Positions 24,136 to 30,186 of a DNA stretch of 64,000 nt are shown in pieces. The stretch lies in contig JAFLUY010000007.1 of NCBI GenBank assembly GCA_022508565.1, positions 1 to 64,000 on the forward strand, written 5' to 3'. Under the pieces are notes generated by a model. The model was not told the origin of the DNA. It saw nothing but the letters and a program-made list of their open reading frames with translations, and ran no database searches. The DNA is from Erysipelotrichales bacterium. Lineage in GTDB: Bacteria > Bacillota_I > Bacilli_A > RF39 > UBA660. A program made the translations under genes and the position numbers. Numbering within the stretch: position 1 is the stretch's first letter; every line of letters begins with the position of its first letter.

Positions 24136-25938
24136 ATGGAGAGAATGATTAAGGTCATTAATGACAATTTAAAGAATGTAATAGCTGGTATTAAAGATCA
24201 TAAAGCTGATTTAGAAAACACTTTAGATGGCATTAGAAGCGATATGGCTACAAGTGTAAAAGAGGCTAATTCTTATAAAAATGAAGTTGAAGACGCCAGA
24301 ACAATTGTCTATTCTCTAGAAAATGAAATTGCCGATCTAGAAAAAGACTTGGATGAATTAAATCAAAAATTTGGTTCTAAAGATTTTAAAGAAATCTTAG
24401 CTGCTGGTAATAAAGAAATTAATGCTAAAATAATTGAAAAGAAATCATTAATTAATGAACAAGGAAGAATTATTTTAACATTAACTGAAAAAGCTCGTAG
24501 TTTAAAAGAACAATTAGTTGATTTAAGAGAAAGAAAAATAGCTACTGAAGAAGAACTTAAGAAAACTAAAATACTTGAAAGTTATTATGAATTAAGAGTT
24601 ACAGATATAATTAAATTTGCAGAAGAACATCCTGAAGAACTAGCAAATTATAGAGATGAAGTTCCTCAAGATGAATTAGATATTCAAGAAGATATCGATA
24701 TTACTGGTGTTATTGACGGTTCTATTTTCGAAGAAATTGATGAAATTTCTGGTAATGAACCAGATCAAGATTTACTTCAAAATGCATTAGCTAATCCAGG
24801 AGAAATACCTGTATATGAAAAAGAAGCAGAAGAAGAAAAATCTGTAGAAATTGATGTATCTACAGCTAACCAACTTGATAATATAATTACTGATGCAACT
24901 AATTTCATGAATAAAGCTAATGAACTAGATACTAATGATAGTGATTCAAATAATTTGGAAACTTATAGTGAAGATATCAATCCATATTTAGATATGGAAG
25001 GATTAGAAAAAGAACTTGCTCAAGAAGAAACTGTAGTAGATGATGGAATAGAACTAGAAAATAGTGAAGTAGGACTTGTTGAAATTGAGGGTTATGTACC
25101 TGATGCTTCTAAAGCTTCTGAATCAACAGTATCAGAAGAAGGTCCATCAAGTGACAAAGTGGGACTTATTGAAATAGAAGGATATACTCCAGAAACTGAA
25201 GTAGTAAATTCTGAAATAATTGAAGAAATATCTGAATCAATTGAAGAAGAAACTGAGGCTCAAGAAGAAACAACAGGAGAAGTTCAAGACCTAGCTTCAA
25301 TGTTTGAAAAATATGATATGAATCTTAAGATGTTCAGTAAAGCAGAACGAGAAAAATTAGAAAAATCTGATATTAGAGCTAATATGGTTCATTTTGTTAA
25401 AACAATGAGAAAGCATAATATTGAATTAGATAAATTCTATGATAATGCTAATATTCTAATTGCTCTTAAACCAAGAAAATTAGAAAAACTATTAACATTA
25501 ATTGAAAAAACTGATGCAACTCTTGAAGATATGCTTTTAGTATTTAAATATTTAGATAAAGTTAATATCGAAAAATTTGAACAACTTGTTAATGCAGAAA
25601 GTGGAGCAAGTTTAGCATCATGTCTTGGTCAAGCAATTAACACAACTGATGATGTTATTGGTTCAACTTTAGGATTATCAAGAAAAGCAGAAGAAACATT
25701 AAAGAAAACAGCAACTAAAGAAGAAATGAAAATAATGAACGCACTTCCTGATATGGTATTAGAAAACTATCGCGAAGTTAGAGCATTAAATGTTGATAAT
25801 ATTGAAGATTGTATTTCTAAGTATCCTCATAGATTTACTCTTACTCATAGTAAATTCCATGAGATATTGGATAAATATGATACAGAAGATTTAATTAGAT
25901 GTATTAATAAAAATCCAGCTGTTATTGATAAATTGTAG
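24136..25938 (+). CDS. Large coiled-coil protein of unknown function
   Basis: A 600-residue cytoplasmic protein with no signal or membrane segment. Residues 1-165 form a long coiled coil. The middle (about 170-390) is very acidic and low-complexity, and contains two copies, about 30 residues apart, of VGL[VI]EIEGY[VT]P. The C-terminal 200 residues are a run of helical pairs (KPRKLEKLLTLIEKTDATLE; HSKFHEILDKYDTEDLIRCI) weakly reminiscent of helical-repeat folds. No family recognised. GAGAGGT precedes the ATG. Single-gene unit between DedA (divergent) and a surface cluster. Confidence 0.8.
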   Translation: MERMIKVINDNLKNVIAGIKDHKADLENTLDGIRSDMATSVKEANSYKNEVEDARTIVYSLENEIADLEKDLDELNQKFGSKDFKEILAAGNKEINAKIIEKKSLINEQGRIILTLTEKARSLKEQLVDLRERKIATEEELKKTKILESYYELRVTDIIKFAEEHPEELANYRDEVPQDELDIQEDIDITGVIDGSIFEEIDEISGNEPDQDLLQNALANPGEIPVYEKEAEEEKSVEIDVSTANQLDNIITDATNFMNKANELDTNDSDSNNLETYSEDINPYLDMEGLEKELAQEETVVDDGIELENSEVGLVEIEGYVPDASKASESTVSEEGPSSDKVGLIEIEGYTPETEVVNSEIIEEISESIEEETEAQEETTGEVQDLASMFEKYDMNLKMFSKAEREKLEKSDIRANMVHFVKTMRKHNIELDKFYDNANILIALKPRKLEKLLTLIEKTDATLEDMLLVFKYLDKVNIEKFEQLVNAESGASLASCLGQAINTTDDVIGSTLGLSRKAEETLKKTATKEEMKIMNALPDMVLENYREVRALNVDNIEDCISKYPHRFTLTHSKFHEILDKYDTEDLIRCINKNPAVIDKL

Positions 25939-25966: not shown

Positions 25967-26075
25967 GTATATCATTTGTAAAATTTACTCTTATTTACAC
26001 ATATTATGTAGTTATTTGTTATAATTATTATAAATCATTAGTGCATATAAGTACTAAAGAAGTAGGGTGAAAGTA

Positions 26076-27833
26076 ATGAAGAATAAAAAGTTTATTTATT
26101 TTATATTTTTATTTTTAATTATTTTAATTCCTGGTAATGTCTTTGCAGATAAAATCGAAATTACAGGCAATGATGTTCGTGTAAGAACTGAACCAAAAAC
26201 AGGTGAATCTAACATTATAGTAACAGCAGGCCATGGAGATACCTTTGATCTTGTATCAACAGCTTTAGTTGCTGATAAGGGGGGCTGTAGTGCTGGATGG
26301 TATAATGTTAAAGCCTCTGGTAAAAACGGTTATGTTTGCTCAAGTTATGCGAGAATAATTGAAACTACTGTAGTTGTAGATCCAGCAGCACAAAGCGCAT
26401 GTGAACAAGAACTAAGTAAGGCTGGTTTTCCAAAACAATATTGGAGTGGACTATGTTCATTAAAATTAGCTCATCCAAACTGGACATTTAATCCAATTAA
26501 CACAGGTCTTGATTTTAAAGTAGCTGTAGAAAAAGAAAGTGCATGTAAGAAAAATACAATTAGTACATCTAATCAAGAATACATTGATACATCATGTACA
26601 GGAAGTTTTGATTCAGGGTATAAAGCTGTAAGTCAAAAGGCAGTTGCATATTATTTGAATCCGACTAATTTCTTTGATGAAAAAAATATCTTTATGTTTG
26701 AATCAAACTATGTAAATAAAAATGTAAGTGATGATTTATATGCATCTACTTCAAAGAGTATTTTAGGAACGTTTATGGTAGATAATTTACCTAGTCTAAC
26801 AACTGCTATTAATAATGCTTGTCGTACTAAGGAAGTTAATCAGGTAATGATATCTTCAAGAATCAGACAAGAAATTGGTACAGGAAAAGCTACAAGCAAT
26901 ACTTATGCTGGTCAATTGTTATCTTGTATTTCTGGAAATTATACAACACGCTGGGGAACTGTTGATCCACAAGATAATCTATCAATGGATTACTACTATA
27001 ATTTCTTTAATGTTGGAGTTAATGATGGTAGTAATGGAGATGCCGCTTATAAATCAGTATTATATGCTAAAAGACATGGCTGGGGCGGAACAGGAGACCA
27101 AGCAAAGGATTTAGAATTGGCTATAGGTGGCGGAGTTGATTTTTTAAAGAATAAATATATCACAGTTGGTCAAGATACAATATACTTTCAAAAATTTAAT
27201 ACACATCCAGTTAATTCAAGCAATTTATATGTTAACCAATATATGAGCAATATAGCTGCTCCTGTGAGTGAGGCAAGTATTGCCTATAATGCTTATAAAT
27301 TTGCTAATATGCTAAATAGTCCATTTATTTTTAATATACCTGTTTATAACAATGTTGATGTAGTAATCGAGAATTCACCAAATGGTGCTGTTCCAGATGG
27401 TTCAACAAACAGCTCTAATGGCCTTAGTACAGAAACCATTATTGTATCATCGGGTTATAAATTATCAGGTACAACAATAACTGGAATTGCTGTAGGTTCA
27501 ACTTTAAATGATATTAACAATAAATTAAAAGCAAATGGTGCTTCTATTACAAGTGGCTCGCTTAATAAAACAGCAGGTACTGGAATGGTTATTAAAATTT
27601 CGAATGGAAGTACTGAAAAAGAATATACTTTAGTAGTTAAAGGGGATACTTCTGGTGATGGAGTCATTAATGCTTTAGACCTTTTACAAGTTCAAAAAAG
27701 CATTCTTGGCTCATATAAGTTTAACAGTGCTCAAATGAGTGCTGGGGATCCATCGGGTGATGGAAAACTAGATGCTTTAGATTTATTACAAATTCAAAAA
27801 CATATTTTAGGATCTTATAAAATAACTCAATAG
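26076..27833 (+). CDS. Secreted SH3b / N-acetylglucosaminidase with C-terminal type I dockerin
   Basis: About 585 residues. Signal peptide at 1-25 (ends NVFADKI). SH3b domain (about 27-95: VRVRTEPKTGE to YVCSSYARII) for wall binding. A glucosaminidase-like catalytic domain (about 110-430) has a candidate catalytic Glu in SSRIRQEIGTG and a later FFNVGVNDG segment. A beta-rich module follows (about 455-525). The last 55 residues are two dockerin EF-hand repeats, DTSGDGVINALDLLQVQKSI and DPSGDGKLDALDLLQIQKHI, with the 1-3-5-9-12 calcium-ligand pattern. The cohesin-like gene starts 9 nt after the stop. Confidence 0.88.
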   Translation: MKNKKFIYFIFLFLIILIPGNVFADKIEITGNDVRVRTEPKTGESNIIVTAGHGDTFDLVSTALVADKGGCSAGWYNVKASGKNGYVCSSYARIIETTVVVDPAAQSACEQELSKAGFPKQYWSGLCSLKLAHPNWTFNPINTGLDFKVAVEKESACKKNTISTSNQEYIDTSCTGSFDSGYKAVSQKAVAYYLNPTNFFDEKNIFMFESNYVNKNVSDDLYASTSKSILGTFMVDNLPSLTTAINNACRTKEVNQVMISSRIRQEIGTGKATSNTYAGQLLSCISGNYTTRWGTVDPQDNLSMDYYYNFFNVGVNDGSNGDAAYKSVLYAKRHGWGGTGDQAKDLELAIGGGVDFLKNKYITVGQDTIYFQKFNTHPVNSSNLYVNQYMSNIAAPVSEASIAYNAYKFANMLNSPFIFNIPVYNNVDVVIENSPNGAVPDGSTNSSNGLSTETIIVSSGYKLSGTTITGIAVGSTLNDINNKLKANGASITSGSLNKTAGTGMVIKISNGSTEKEYTLVVKGDTSGDGVINALDLLQVQKSILGSYKFNSAQMSAGDPSGDGKLDALDLLQIQKHILGSYKITQ

Positions 27834-27842
27834 GAGGATGTT

Positions 27843-29372
27843 ATGAAAAAGTTTTATGTAATTATTTTAGGATTATTTATGATAGTATTACCTACACATG
27901 TATATGCATCATCTGCAAATATAAGTGTAAGTGCTAGCAATACAGTTATGGTAGGAAATCAAGTAACTGTAACTGTTACTTTATCAAGTAGTAGTAAGAT
28001 AGGAAGTTGGCAAGTAGATTTATCTTATGATAAAAATTTATTACAACTAACTAACAGTAATGCTGAGGGTGGCGGAACTTATATGGTAAATGTTGCCCAA
28101 AACGGTACTACAAGCAAAAAATATACATTTACATTTAAAACATTAAAAGCAGGTTCAGCAAAGGTAAGTGTAAATTCTTATACTTTGTATGACTATAATA
28201 CTATGGATGCAATGCAAACAACTGGTTCATCAAAAACTATTAGTATTAAAACAAAAGAAGAAATAGAGGCATCATATTCATCTAATGCTTACCTTAAAAG
28301 TTTAAGCGTTGGAGAATATGAATTAAAACCTGCATTTAATAAAGAGACATATGAATATAATGTTGAAGTTGAAAATGAAATTGAATCTATTACTTTAAGT
28401 GCATCAAAAGAAGATGCTAATGCTACTATAAGTGGTTCTGGTGAAAAAGAATTAGTTGAAGGTAATAACAAATTTGAAATAGTTGTTACTGCCCAAAAAG
28501 GTAATAGTTTAACTTATGTAGTTAATGTTTATAGAAAAGAATTAGATCCTATTAATATAAATATAAATGGTAAAGAATATGGTGTAGTTAGAAGAGCAGA
28601 TGCACTTCCTGAATTTAAAACTTTTACACCAACTACAGTAACGTATGAAGACACAGAAATACCCGCTTTATACAGTGAAATAACTGGAATTACTTTAGTT
28701 GGACTAAAAGATGAAGAAGGAAATGTGGTTACTTACTTTTATGAAGACAATAAGATAACTAATATCTACATTGAATTAAATGGAAATACTTATGCAATTA
28801 CTCCTCTTGAATTAAAAGAAAGTGATTTATTCAATAACTATAAGATCAAAGAAGTTGAAATAAATGGTGTTAAAGTAAAAGCTTATATTTTAGCAGACGA
28901 TTCAAAATACGCAATTATATATGGACAAAATGTTGAAAATGGAGATATCACATATTATTCTTACTCTTTAACTGATGGAACATTCCAAGTTTATGATAAA
29001 GATTTAATTGCCTTTTATGAAGAAAGAATTCAAAACTACAAGTATATTCTTTTAGGCGCTATTGCAGTAATATTTATTCTTCTACTTATCGTATGTTTTA
29101 GAAAAACAAAAAAAATTAAGAAAAATGATAACAAATATGATGCTTCATTAGTTCAAACTATTGAAAATCATATAGATGAAGAAATAAAAGAAGAAATAAA
29201 AAATGAAAACGAGAAAAAAGAAGAAACTAAAGAGATCAAACTTGTAGAAAAAGATATAGAGGAAAGTGTTGATAAAACTAGCGAGATAAAACTTGTTAAC
29301 AACGAAGAAAGTAAGAATAATAAGAAACATAAGAATAAAAAACAAAAGATTAGAAATGACTTTGATTTCTAG
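27843..29372 (+). CDS. Membrane-anchored cohesin-like protein with cadherin-like domain
   Basis: A 509-residue surface protein. Signal peptide at 1-22. A cohesin-like domain covers about 24-140 (ISVSASNTVMVGNQVTVTVT, IGSWQVDLSYDKNLLQL, then SAKVSVNS). A cadherin-like beta-sandwich (about 150-232) starts YLKSLSVGEYELKPAFNKET and ends TYVVNVYRKE. An unassigned extracellular region follows. One transmembrane helix lies at about 400-421, then a highly charged 85-residue cytoplasmic tail with two EIKLV repeats. GGAGG overlapping the upstream stop serves as ribosome-binding site, so it is co-translated with the dockerin enzyme. Probable anchor for that enzyme (inference). Confidence 0.8.
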   Translation: MKKFYVIILGLFMIVLPTHVYASSANISVSASNTVMVGNQVTVTVTLSSSSKIGSWQVDLSYDKNLLQLTNSNAEGGGTYMVNVAQNGTTSKKYTFTFKTLKAGSAKVSVNSYTLYDYNTMDAMQTTGSSKTISIKTKEEIEASYSSNAYLKSLSVGEYELKPAFNKETYEYNVEVENEIESITLSASKEDANATISGSGEKELVEGNNKFEIVVTAQKGNSLTYVVNVYRKELDPINININGKEYGVVRRADALPEFKTFTPTTVTYEDTEIPALYSEITGITLVGLKDEEGNVVTYFYEDNKITNIYIELNGNTYAITPLELKESDLFNNYKIKEVEINGVKVKAYILADDSKYAIIYGQNVENGDITYYSYSLTDGTFQVYDKDLIAFYEERIQNYKYILLGAIAVIFILLLIVCFRKTKKIKKNDNKYDASLVQTIENHIDEEIKEEIKNENEKKEETKEIKLVEKDIEESVDKTSEIKLVNNEESKNNKKHKNKKQKIRNDFDF

Positions 29373-29415
29373 TCTTTTTTCTTGTCTTTTTCATATAAAG
29401 TAATAGGTGATATGT

Positions 29416-30186
29416 TTGAAATATTTTAAATACTCTTTACTTATTTTTTTATGTGTAATTTCATTTTATGTTTCAGATAAACTACTTTTATATGTTGAAA
29501 ATGCAAGCCCTTTAATGCAGGCAATAAACGATGTTGAAGATTTTGATGAATATGCTCCGGTTAATGCTACTATTGATGGTAATACTATAATACCAGGAAA
29601 AAAAGGAAGAACTATTAATAAAAGAGAAACTTACTTAAAGATGAATGATTTTGGAGCATTTAATAATACCTTTTTTGTTTATGATTATGAATCGCCAGAA
29701 GTGTCTTTAGATGATAATTTAGATAAAGTAATTATAAAAGGAAATGATGATAAAAAAATATCATTATTAGTCGATACTAATAAGTATGATGAATTTTTTC
29801 TTGAAAATAAAATTAAAACAACTAAATTAATTAGTAATAAAGATAATATAACAGATGATGAAAACATTAGTTATATTAATGCAAACTTAGATAAAGATCT
29901 TTTCTATGACTTAAATTATTATCTAAAGAGAAAAAAAGAAAATAATAAAATATGTTTAGTAGGTAAGTCAAATATAGAGGTTTGTAAAACTTTAAAATAT
30001 TATTTGGTTGAACCAAATTTAAATATGTATCATTCAAATGTTGTTATGGTAAAAACAAAACTTGAAGGCGGTTCTATTATATATATTCATGATGATGTTT
30101 CTTTAAGTGAATTAAAAGTAATAGTTCAAGAAATAAATTATAAAAATTTAGAAATAGTAAGCTTAAGTGAATTAATTAAAGAATAA
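29416..30186 (+). CDS. Membrane-anchored protein, possibly a degenerate polysaccharide-deacetylase-like domain
   Basis: About 256 residues. N-terminal hydrophobic anchor (about 5-23), then an external region containing IIPGKKGRTINKRETYLKM and LDKVIIKGNDDKKISLLVDT, a layout resembling the N-terminal lead of Firmicutes NodB-fold deacetylases. The metal-binding His-His-Asp motifs were not found, so catalytic function is doubtful. The start is taken as TTG at 29416, with AGGTGAT (29405-29411) 4 nt upstream; the ATG at 29412 is out of frame. Same strand and just after the cohesin-like gene. Confidence 0.65.
   Translation: MKYFKYSLLIFLCVISFYVSDKLLLYVENASPLMQAINDVEDFDEYAPVNATIDGNTIIPGKKGRTINKRETYLKMNDFGAFNNTFFVYDYESPEVSLDDNLDKVIIKGNDDKKISLLVDTNKYDEFFLENKIKTTKLISNKDNITDDENISYINANLDKDLFYDLNYYLKRKKENNKICLVGKSNIEVCKTLKYYLVEPNLNMYHSNVVMVKTKLEGGSIIYIHDDVSLSELKVIVQEINYKNLEIVSLSELIKE

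What the first reader, a model, noticed from the sequence alone, without database searches (positions are those of the whole stretch)
26076..29372. Dockerin-bearing wall hydrolase encoded next to a membrane-anchored cohesin-like protein
Seen: the glucosaminidase ends in two 12-position calcium-loop repeats typical of type I dockerin. The gene 9 nt downstream has an N-terminal domain that reads like a cohesin, a cadherin-like domain, one membrane helix and a charged tail. Known: cohesin-dockerin pairs build cellulosomes, and scattered dockerins occur elsewhere. Inference: this two-gene unit is a minimal non-cellulosomal docking system that fixes a peptidoglycan hydrolase at the membrane, with the 85-residue cytoplasmic tail perhaps linking to division or wall machinery.
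Basis: partly seen in the sequence, partly recalled or inferred. Interest (0 to 1): 0.75.

Follow-up and report, generated by a model that had tools for sequence, protein, structure and literature searches.

The report
Wall enzyme docked to membrane receptor
In a group of uncultured gut Bacilli, a secreted enzyme that probably cuts the bacterium's own wall carries a plug whose matching socket is encoded in the very next gene on a membrane-anchored protein, a dedicated docking pair built from the same parts that assemble cellulose-digesting complexes.

Summary
Gene 1 (26076-27833) is a secreted SH3/GH73-type glucosaminidase ending in a type I dockerin (Pfam 45 bits). Gene 2, 9 nt on (27843-29372), has an N-terminal cohesin (32.8 bits alone; predicted fold Z 14 to solved cohesins), a cadherin-like domain, a conserved all-beta domain, one membrane helix and a tail. 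The genome has one dockerin and one cohesin.

In 241 genomes of the same order, 182 of the 183 with the full receptor also have a dockerin. In fetched loci, 106 of 107 glucosaminidase-dockerin genes are followed within 25 nt by the receptor. The two dockerin repeats match each other at known recognition positions, as in dual-binding dockerins. Dockerin columns covary with cohesin columns far more than with five control domains. In other Bacilli families the same receptor follows dockerin-bearing glucosaminidase, GH25, amidase or metallo-beta-lactamase-fold genes.

Best reading: a non-cellulosomal, one-to-one dockerin-cohesin pair that tethers a wall hydrolase at the membrane, working like SagB-SpdC. 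The proposed role of the cytoplasmic tail is not supported: it ranges from 7 to 173 residues. Binding and calcium dependence are untested; no report of the pair was found in the papers searched.

The parts
26076..27833 (+). Secreted glucosaminidase with C-terminal dockerin (585 aa from ATG; residue numbers in this report count from the GTG at 26067)
26076..26147 (+). Signal peptide (cleavage after ...NVFA by eye)
   Evidence: sequence; hydrophobic N-terminus with conserved A27
26148..26366 (+). SH3-type domain, residues about 28-100
   Evidence: SH3_3 in 30 of 47 orthologs, not over threshold in the window protein itself
26367..27359 (+). GH73-type glucosaminidase domain, residues 101-431; invariant Glu269 is the likely catalytic acid
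   Evidence: SagB profile 36.8 bits; Atl/AtlE structures; E269 invariant in 47 orthologs
27429..27635 (+). Small alpha/beta module just before the dockerin (residues 455-523), X-module-like in position
   Evidence: confident in the model; found with the dockerin in several relatives
27639..27809 (+). Type I dockerin; calcium loops at 27645-27680 and 27747-27782
   Evidence: PF00404 45 bits, 49.1 bits; repeat symmetry
27832..27837 (+). Ribosome-binding site AGGAGG of gene 2, overlapping the TAG of gene 1
   Evidence: sequence
27843..29372 (+). Membrane-anchored cohesin receptor (509 aa)
27912..28259 (+). Cohesin domain, residues 24-139
   Evidence: 32.8 bits; VIA-align Z 14.2, 115 residues, rmsd 2.4 to 2jh2_A
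28296..28538 (+). Cadherin-like beta-sandwich, residues 152-232
   Evidence: PF12733 44.4 bits
28548..29027 (+). Conserved membrane-proximal all-beta domain, residues 236-395, no close solved fold found
   Evidence: pLDDT 94.4; Foldseek no hit E<=0.001; best VIA Z 4.0 over 42 residues
29043..29099 (+). Single transmembrane helix, about residues 401-419
   Evidence: hydropathy; C-terminal membrane helix in 104 of 106 orthologs
29100..29369 (+). Charged cytoplasmic tail, not conserved in length or sequence

Best explanation
The two genes form an operon for a dedicated docking pair. The glucosaminidase is secreted, folds its dockerin around two calcium ions, and the dockerin binds the cohesin at the outer end of the neighbouring membrane protein. 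The receptor (cohesin, cadherin-like spacer, all-beta domain, single helix) holds the enzyme close to the membrane, where new glycan strands emerge, so that an otherwise diffusible hydrolase acts locally. Shown here: the domains, one copy of each module in the genome, conserved order and co-occurrence, repeat symmetry, and dockerin-cohesin covariation. Inferred: physical binding, calcium dependence, action on the cell's own peptidoglycan, and membrane-proximal glycan trimming.
For: Single dockerin and single cohesin in the genome. 106 of 107 glucosaminidase-dockerin genes in fetched loci are followed at -11 to 25 nt by the receptor. 182 of 183 genomes with the full receptor have a dockerin, Fisher p 2e-30. 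The two dockerin repeats agree at positions 10, 11, 13-15, 17, 18 in 77-100% of sequences against 25-73% expected, with no excess at positions 4, 8, 16; positions 11 and 15 are the main contacts in a solved complex (PMC5429695). The top 35 couplings of dockerin columns all fall in the cohesin, which is 114 of 826 columns; 49 of the top 50 in 38 sequences under 50% identity. Cohesin fold confirmed. Two of 20 receptor homologs outside the order have no dockerin gene upstream, and both also lack the cohesin. The genome has 5 penicillin-binding transpeptidase matches, so it probably makes peptidoglycan.
Against: No binding data. The structure tool returned no interface or PAE, so the docked pose was not examined. 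Much of the covariation comes from two dockerin-cohesin subtypes switching together; inside the main subtype the cohesin excess is weaker and some glucosaminidase columns couple as strongly. The genome also has sortases and two other glucosaminidases, so neither anchoring nor activity is uniquely supplied by this pair. The enzyme's substrate is inferred from weak similarity.
Confidence: 0.8

Rival explanations
1. The receptor is a regulator rather than a mere tether: binding through cohesin-dockerin activates, inhibits or sets the cut length of the glucosaminidase, as SpdC does for SagB.
For: One-to-one operon pairing; SagB-like catalytic part; SpdC sets SagB product length by direct contact (PMC12272431). 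A conserved extra domain of unknown function sits next to the membrane.
Against: The docking module is linked to the catalytic domain through a separate small domain, and the same receptor family pairs with unrelated catalytic domains (GH25, amidase, metallo-beta-lactamase fold), which fits tethering better than catalytic-site regulation.
Confidence: 0.3
2. A miniature cellulosome-like display that attacks outside glycans (mucin, chitin, other bacteria's walls) rather than the cell's own wall.
For: Dockerin enzymes in gut bacteria often serve glycan feeding; dockerin-bearing wall hydrolases in cellulosomes have led to a 'lyticome' idea (PMC6403190).
Against: One cohesin and one dockerin enzyme in the genome, no Pfam carbohydrate-binding module over threshold in either protein, and a single-pass membrane anchor; related pairs carry GH25, amidase or glucosaminidase, all wall-hydrolase families.
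Confidence: 0.12
3. The dockerin is a calcium-binding wall-retention or stability element and the neighbouring cohesin-like domain is an unrelated Ig-like fold.
For: Whole-protein Pfam scan misses the cohesin; sequence identity to the matched solved cohesins is only about 9-20%.
Against: Isolated domain scores over the Pfam cut-off, the best structural matches are cohesins, and dockerin columns covary with this domain specifically.
Confidence: 0.05

Closest known systems
Cellulosome type I cohesin-dockerin pairs (Clostridium, Acetivibrio, Ruminococcus)
   Same: Same two modules, calcium loops, paired repeats with matching recognition positions, cohesin fold.
   Different: No scaffoldin, one cohesin and one dockerin per genome here, anchor is a single membrane helix, enzyme is a wall-type glucosaminidase.
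SagB-SpdC peptidoglycan-release complex (Staphylococcus aureus)
   Same: Membrane protein paired with a SagB-like glucosaminidase; likely works on glycan near the membrane.
   Different: SpdC is an integral membrane protein of the CAAX protease family; here contact would be through cohesin-dockerin, and the enzyme has no membrane helix beyond its signal peptide.
Clostridium perfringens cohesin-like module and dockerin-bearing glycoside hydrolases
   Same: Non-cellulosomal cohesin; the best structural match to our domain is the NagJ module 2jh2.
   Different: From general knowledge, there both modules sit on secreted carbohydrate-active enzymes or toxins; here the cohesin is on a membrane receptor in the same operon.
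Dockerin-bearing lysozymes and wall hydrolases in cellulosomes ('lyticome' idea, PMC6403190)
   Same: A wall hydrolase carries a dockerin.
   Different: Those join multi-enzyme scaffoldins; this is a dedicated one-to-one membrane pair in a bacterium without a cellulosome.

Membership tests
Type I dockerin | Pfam Dockerin_1 over its cut-off with two calcium-loop repeats | tested here: met
   45 bits vs 22.9, residues 525-581; both loops complete
Type I dockerin | Matching recognition positions in both repeats (dual binding) | tested here: met
Type I dockerin | Calcium-dependent high-affinity binding of a cohesin | not testable with these tools
   needs purified domains
Cohesin | Pfam Cohesin over its cut-off | tested here: met
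   32.8 bits vs 24.1 on the isolated domain; not reported for the whole protein
Cohesin | Cohesin beta-sandwich fold | tested here: met
   pLDDT above 90 over the domain; Z 14.2/115 aligned/2.4 A to 2jh2_A, Z about 13 to type I cohesins
Cellulosome | Scaffoldin with several cohesins binding several dockerin enzymes | tested here: not met
   one cohesin, one dockerin in the assembly
SagB glucosaminidase | NCBIfam SagB over its cut-off (425 bits) | tested here: not met
   36.8 bits, a distant relative only
SagB-SpdC complex | CAAX-protease-family SpdC partner | tested here: not met
   the partner gene is a single-pass protein without that domain
GH73-type glucosaminidase | Conserved catalytic Glu and similarity to Atl/AtlE glucosaminidases | tested here: inconclusive
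   E269 invariant, weak similarity to 6fxo/4pi7; Pfam Glucosaminidase does not reach threshold in the window protein but does in several relatives of the unit outside the order

The most novel reading that the evidence does not exclude
The receptor is a general, exchangeable hydrolase-docking platform of Bacilli: a conserved membrane protein with an undescribed membrane-proximal domain and a variable cohesin captures whichever wall hydrolase is encoded beside it (glucosaminidase, GH25 muramidase, amidase, metallo-beta-lactamase-fold enzyme), with paralogous pairs in one cell kept apart by co-evolved specificity.
Probability: 0.5. Interest if true: 0.75.

Novelty: new variant of a known kind. 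Interest (0 to 1): 0.62.

Why it matters
Cohesin-dockerin pairs are known mainly as the assembly parts of cellulosomes. Here a single, operon-encoded, order-wide conserved pair appears to serve the cell's own wall. It offers a testable answer to how a secreted wall hydrolase is kept at the membrane in these uncultured gut Bacilli, supplies more than a hundred naturally paired dockerin-cohesin sequences for specificity studies, and adds a conserved extracellular domain for which no similar solved fold was found.

Tried and rejected
Cytoplasmic tail as a link to division machinery: rejected as a general feature, length 7-173 residues, no conservation. Lack of sortase as the reason for this anchoring: rejected, four sortase matches in the genome. 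Conserved wider neighbourhood: rejected, flanking genes are shared by at most 5 of the compared loci. Whole-protein searches for the cohesin in Pfam or PDB failed; isolating the domain or using a family profile worked. Docked pose by reading through the TAG between the two in-frame genes: the model is confident (pLDDT 93, pTM 0.74), but no coordinates or PAE were available, so it supports the domain folds only. Foldseek and VIA-align searches with the membrane-proximal domain gave nothing convincing. Named relatives: the one genome-contig scan gave a single locus, 'uncultured Bacilli bacterium'; the order is probably RF39, an inference. Literature searches found no report of this pair in the papers held.

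Full report
What is there. Gene 1 (26076-27833) encodes a signal peptide, an SH3-type region, a glucosaminidase-type domain, a small alpha/beta module and a C-terminal dockerin. Dockerin_1 scores 45 bits over residues 525-581, and both calcium loops have the expected ligands. The catalytic region is a distant relative of SagB (36.8 bits, well below that family's cut-off) and of the solved Atl and AtlE glucosaminidases. Glu269, in the motif SRIRQEIG, is invariant in 47 orthologs and is the likely catalytic acid (inference). Gene 2 starts 9 nt after the stop of gene 1, in the same frame, with its ribosome-binding site overlapping that stop. It has a signal peptide, a cohesin, a cadherin-like domain, a further conserved domain, one membrane helix and a charged tail.

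The cohesin is real. A whole-protein Pfam scan misses it, but the isolated domain scores 32.8 bits against a cut-off of 24.1, and the genome-wide search finds it at 30.5 bits. A profile of 69 orthologous domains finds cellulosomal cohesins among solved structures (E 8e-5 and 1e-4). The predicted structure matches cohesins first by Foldseek. VIA-align gives Z 14.2 to the C. perfringens module 2jh2 and about 13 to several type I cohesins.

The pair is alone in its genome. The assembly (1.69 Mb, about 95% complete) holds one dockerin and one cohesin by Pfam and by the family profile. This argues against a cellulosome and leaves each module only the other as a visible partner.

The pair is conserved. 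Of 241 genomes of the same order (one family, about 92 genera), 200 have a dockerin and 183 have a full-length receptor (E <= 1e-60). 182 of those 183 also have a dockerin, and 40 genomes lack both (Fisher p 2e-30, not corrected for kinship). In the loci fetched, 107 encode the glucosaminidase with a dockerin, and in 106 the next gene is the receptor, at -11 to 25 nt. In the remaining case no full receptor ORF was found next to the enzyme. The fetched loci were chosen mainly by their dockerins, and ten more by their cohesins. The other flanking genes are not conserved, so selection keeps these two together.

Sequence signatures of binding. The two dockerin repeats of one protein agree with each other at positions 10, 11, 13, 14, 15, 17 and 18 in 77-100% of sequences, against 25-73% when repeats are shuffled between proteins. 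Positions 4, 8 and 16 show no excess. This fits a dockerin that can bind in two orientations; in a solved Ruminococcus complex positions 11 and 15 dominate the contact (PMC5429695). Mutual information over 97 paired loci puts all 35 strongest dockerin couplings in the neighbouring cohesin rather than in the SH3, catalytic, X, cadherin-like or membrane-proximal domains, which share the same ancestry. In 38 sequences below 50% identity, 49 of the top 50 couplings are still in the cohesin. A caveat: most of this signal comes from two subtypes, an L-type dockerin (DLLxxQK) with a cohesin bearing W56 and Y62-D63, and a Y-type dockerin (DYVxxKN) with a cohesin lacking them, which switch together. 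Inside the L-type the cohesin excess is smaller, and some catalytic-domain columns couple as strongly. Coupling of position 10 with cohesin residue 81 remains there.

The unit outside the order. A profile of the receptor finds full-length homologs in other Bacilli families. In a sample of 392 genomes of the phylum, all matches at E <= 1e-30 lie in the same class. Of 20 such loci inspected, 18 have a dockerin gene directly upstream. Of ten enzymes scanned, the catalytic domains include glucosaminidase, GH25 muramidase, amidase and a metallo-beta-lactamase fold. Three genomes (G309, G518, G570) have two pairs with different upstream genes. The two receptors without an upstream dockerin also lack the cohesin.

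The receptor beyond the cohesin. Residues 236-395 form a confidently predicted all-beta domain (pLDDT 94.4, pTM 0.84) with no close solved structure by Foldseek or VIA-align (best Z 4.0 over 42 residues). This does not prove a new fold. The membrane helix is kept in 104 of 106 receptors, whereas the tail varies from 7 to 173 residues.

Mechanism. The best reading is that the enzyme is exported, its dockerin folds with calcium, and it docks on the cohesin held above the membrane. That would keep a wall-cutting enzyme near the membrane. The nearest functional parallel is SagB-SpdC of S. aureus, where a membrane protein binds a glucosaminidase and the pair releases new glycan from its lipid anchor (PMC12272431). 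The present pair is not a member of that system: the partner is unrelated and SagB's cut-off is not met. The genome has five transpeptidase matches, and order RF39, to which it probably belongs (inference), is predicted to be largely walled (PMC10868615). Tethering is favoured over pure regulation because unrelated catalytic domains use the same receptor family.

Novelty. Dockerin-bearing wall hydrolases have been reported inside cellulosomes, with the suggestion of a 'lyticome' (PMC6403190). No paper found in the held library describes a dedicated membrane cohesin for such an enzyme; most subscription papers are not held. I class it as a new variant of the non-cellulosomal cohesin-dockerin kind.

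Limits. The genomes compared are a sample and mostly draft assemblies. Orthology cut-offs are mine. No binding, activity or localisation was measured, and no interface prediction could be inspected.

Noticed in passing
window 29407-30186: Gene 34 nt downstream of the receptor has a weak match to the YlxY sporulation polysaccharide deacetylase family (44.5 bits, far below the 391.5 cut-off); homologs are in only 2 of the compared loci, so it is not part of the conserved unit.
   Followed up: partly
L205, L206, L207, L208, L216, L217 (genomes G309, G518, G570): Single genomes with two dockerin-receptor pairs and different enzymes: GH25 plus glucosaminidase; metallo-beta-lactamase fold plus a second pair; amidase plus glucosaminidase.
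   Followed up: partly
genomes G233, G014, G139, G015 of the same order: Some relatives have 10-19 dockerin matches, suggesting larger dockerin systems in this otherwise minimal group.
   Followed up: no
L004, L008, L010, L012, L021, L023, L025 and others: Cohesin matches inside open frames of 2400-4000 residues in many relatives, apparently giant surface proteins distinct from the receptor.
   Followed up: no
window 28548-29027: Receptor domain 236-395: confident all-beta model with no close solved fold found.
   Followed up: partly
L220, L221 (genomes G394, G405): Short receptor homologs that keep the cadherin-like and membrane-proximal domains but lack the cohesin, with no dockerin gene beside them.
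   Followed up: partly
window 24136-25938: 600-residue coiled-coil protein upstream of the unit with no clear family; not conserved next to the pair.
   Followed up: no
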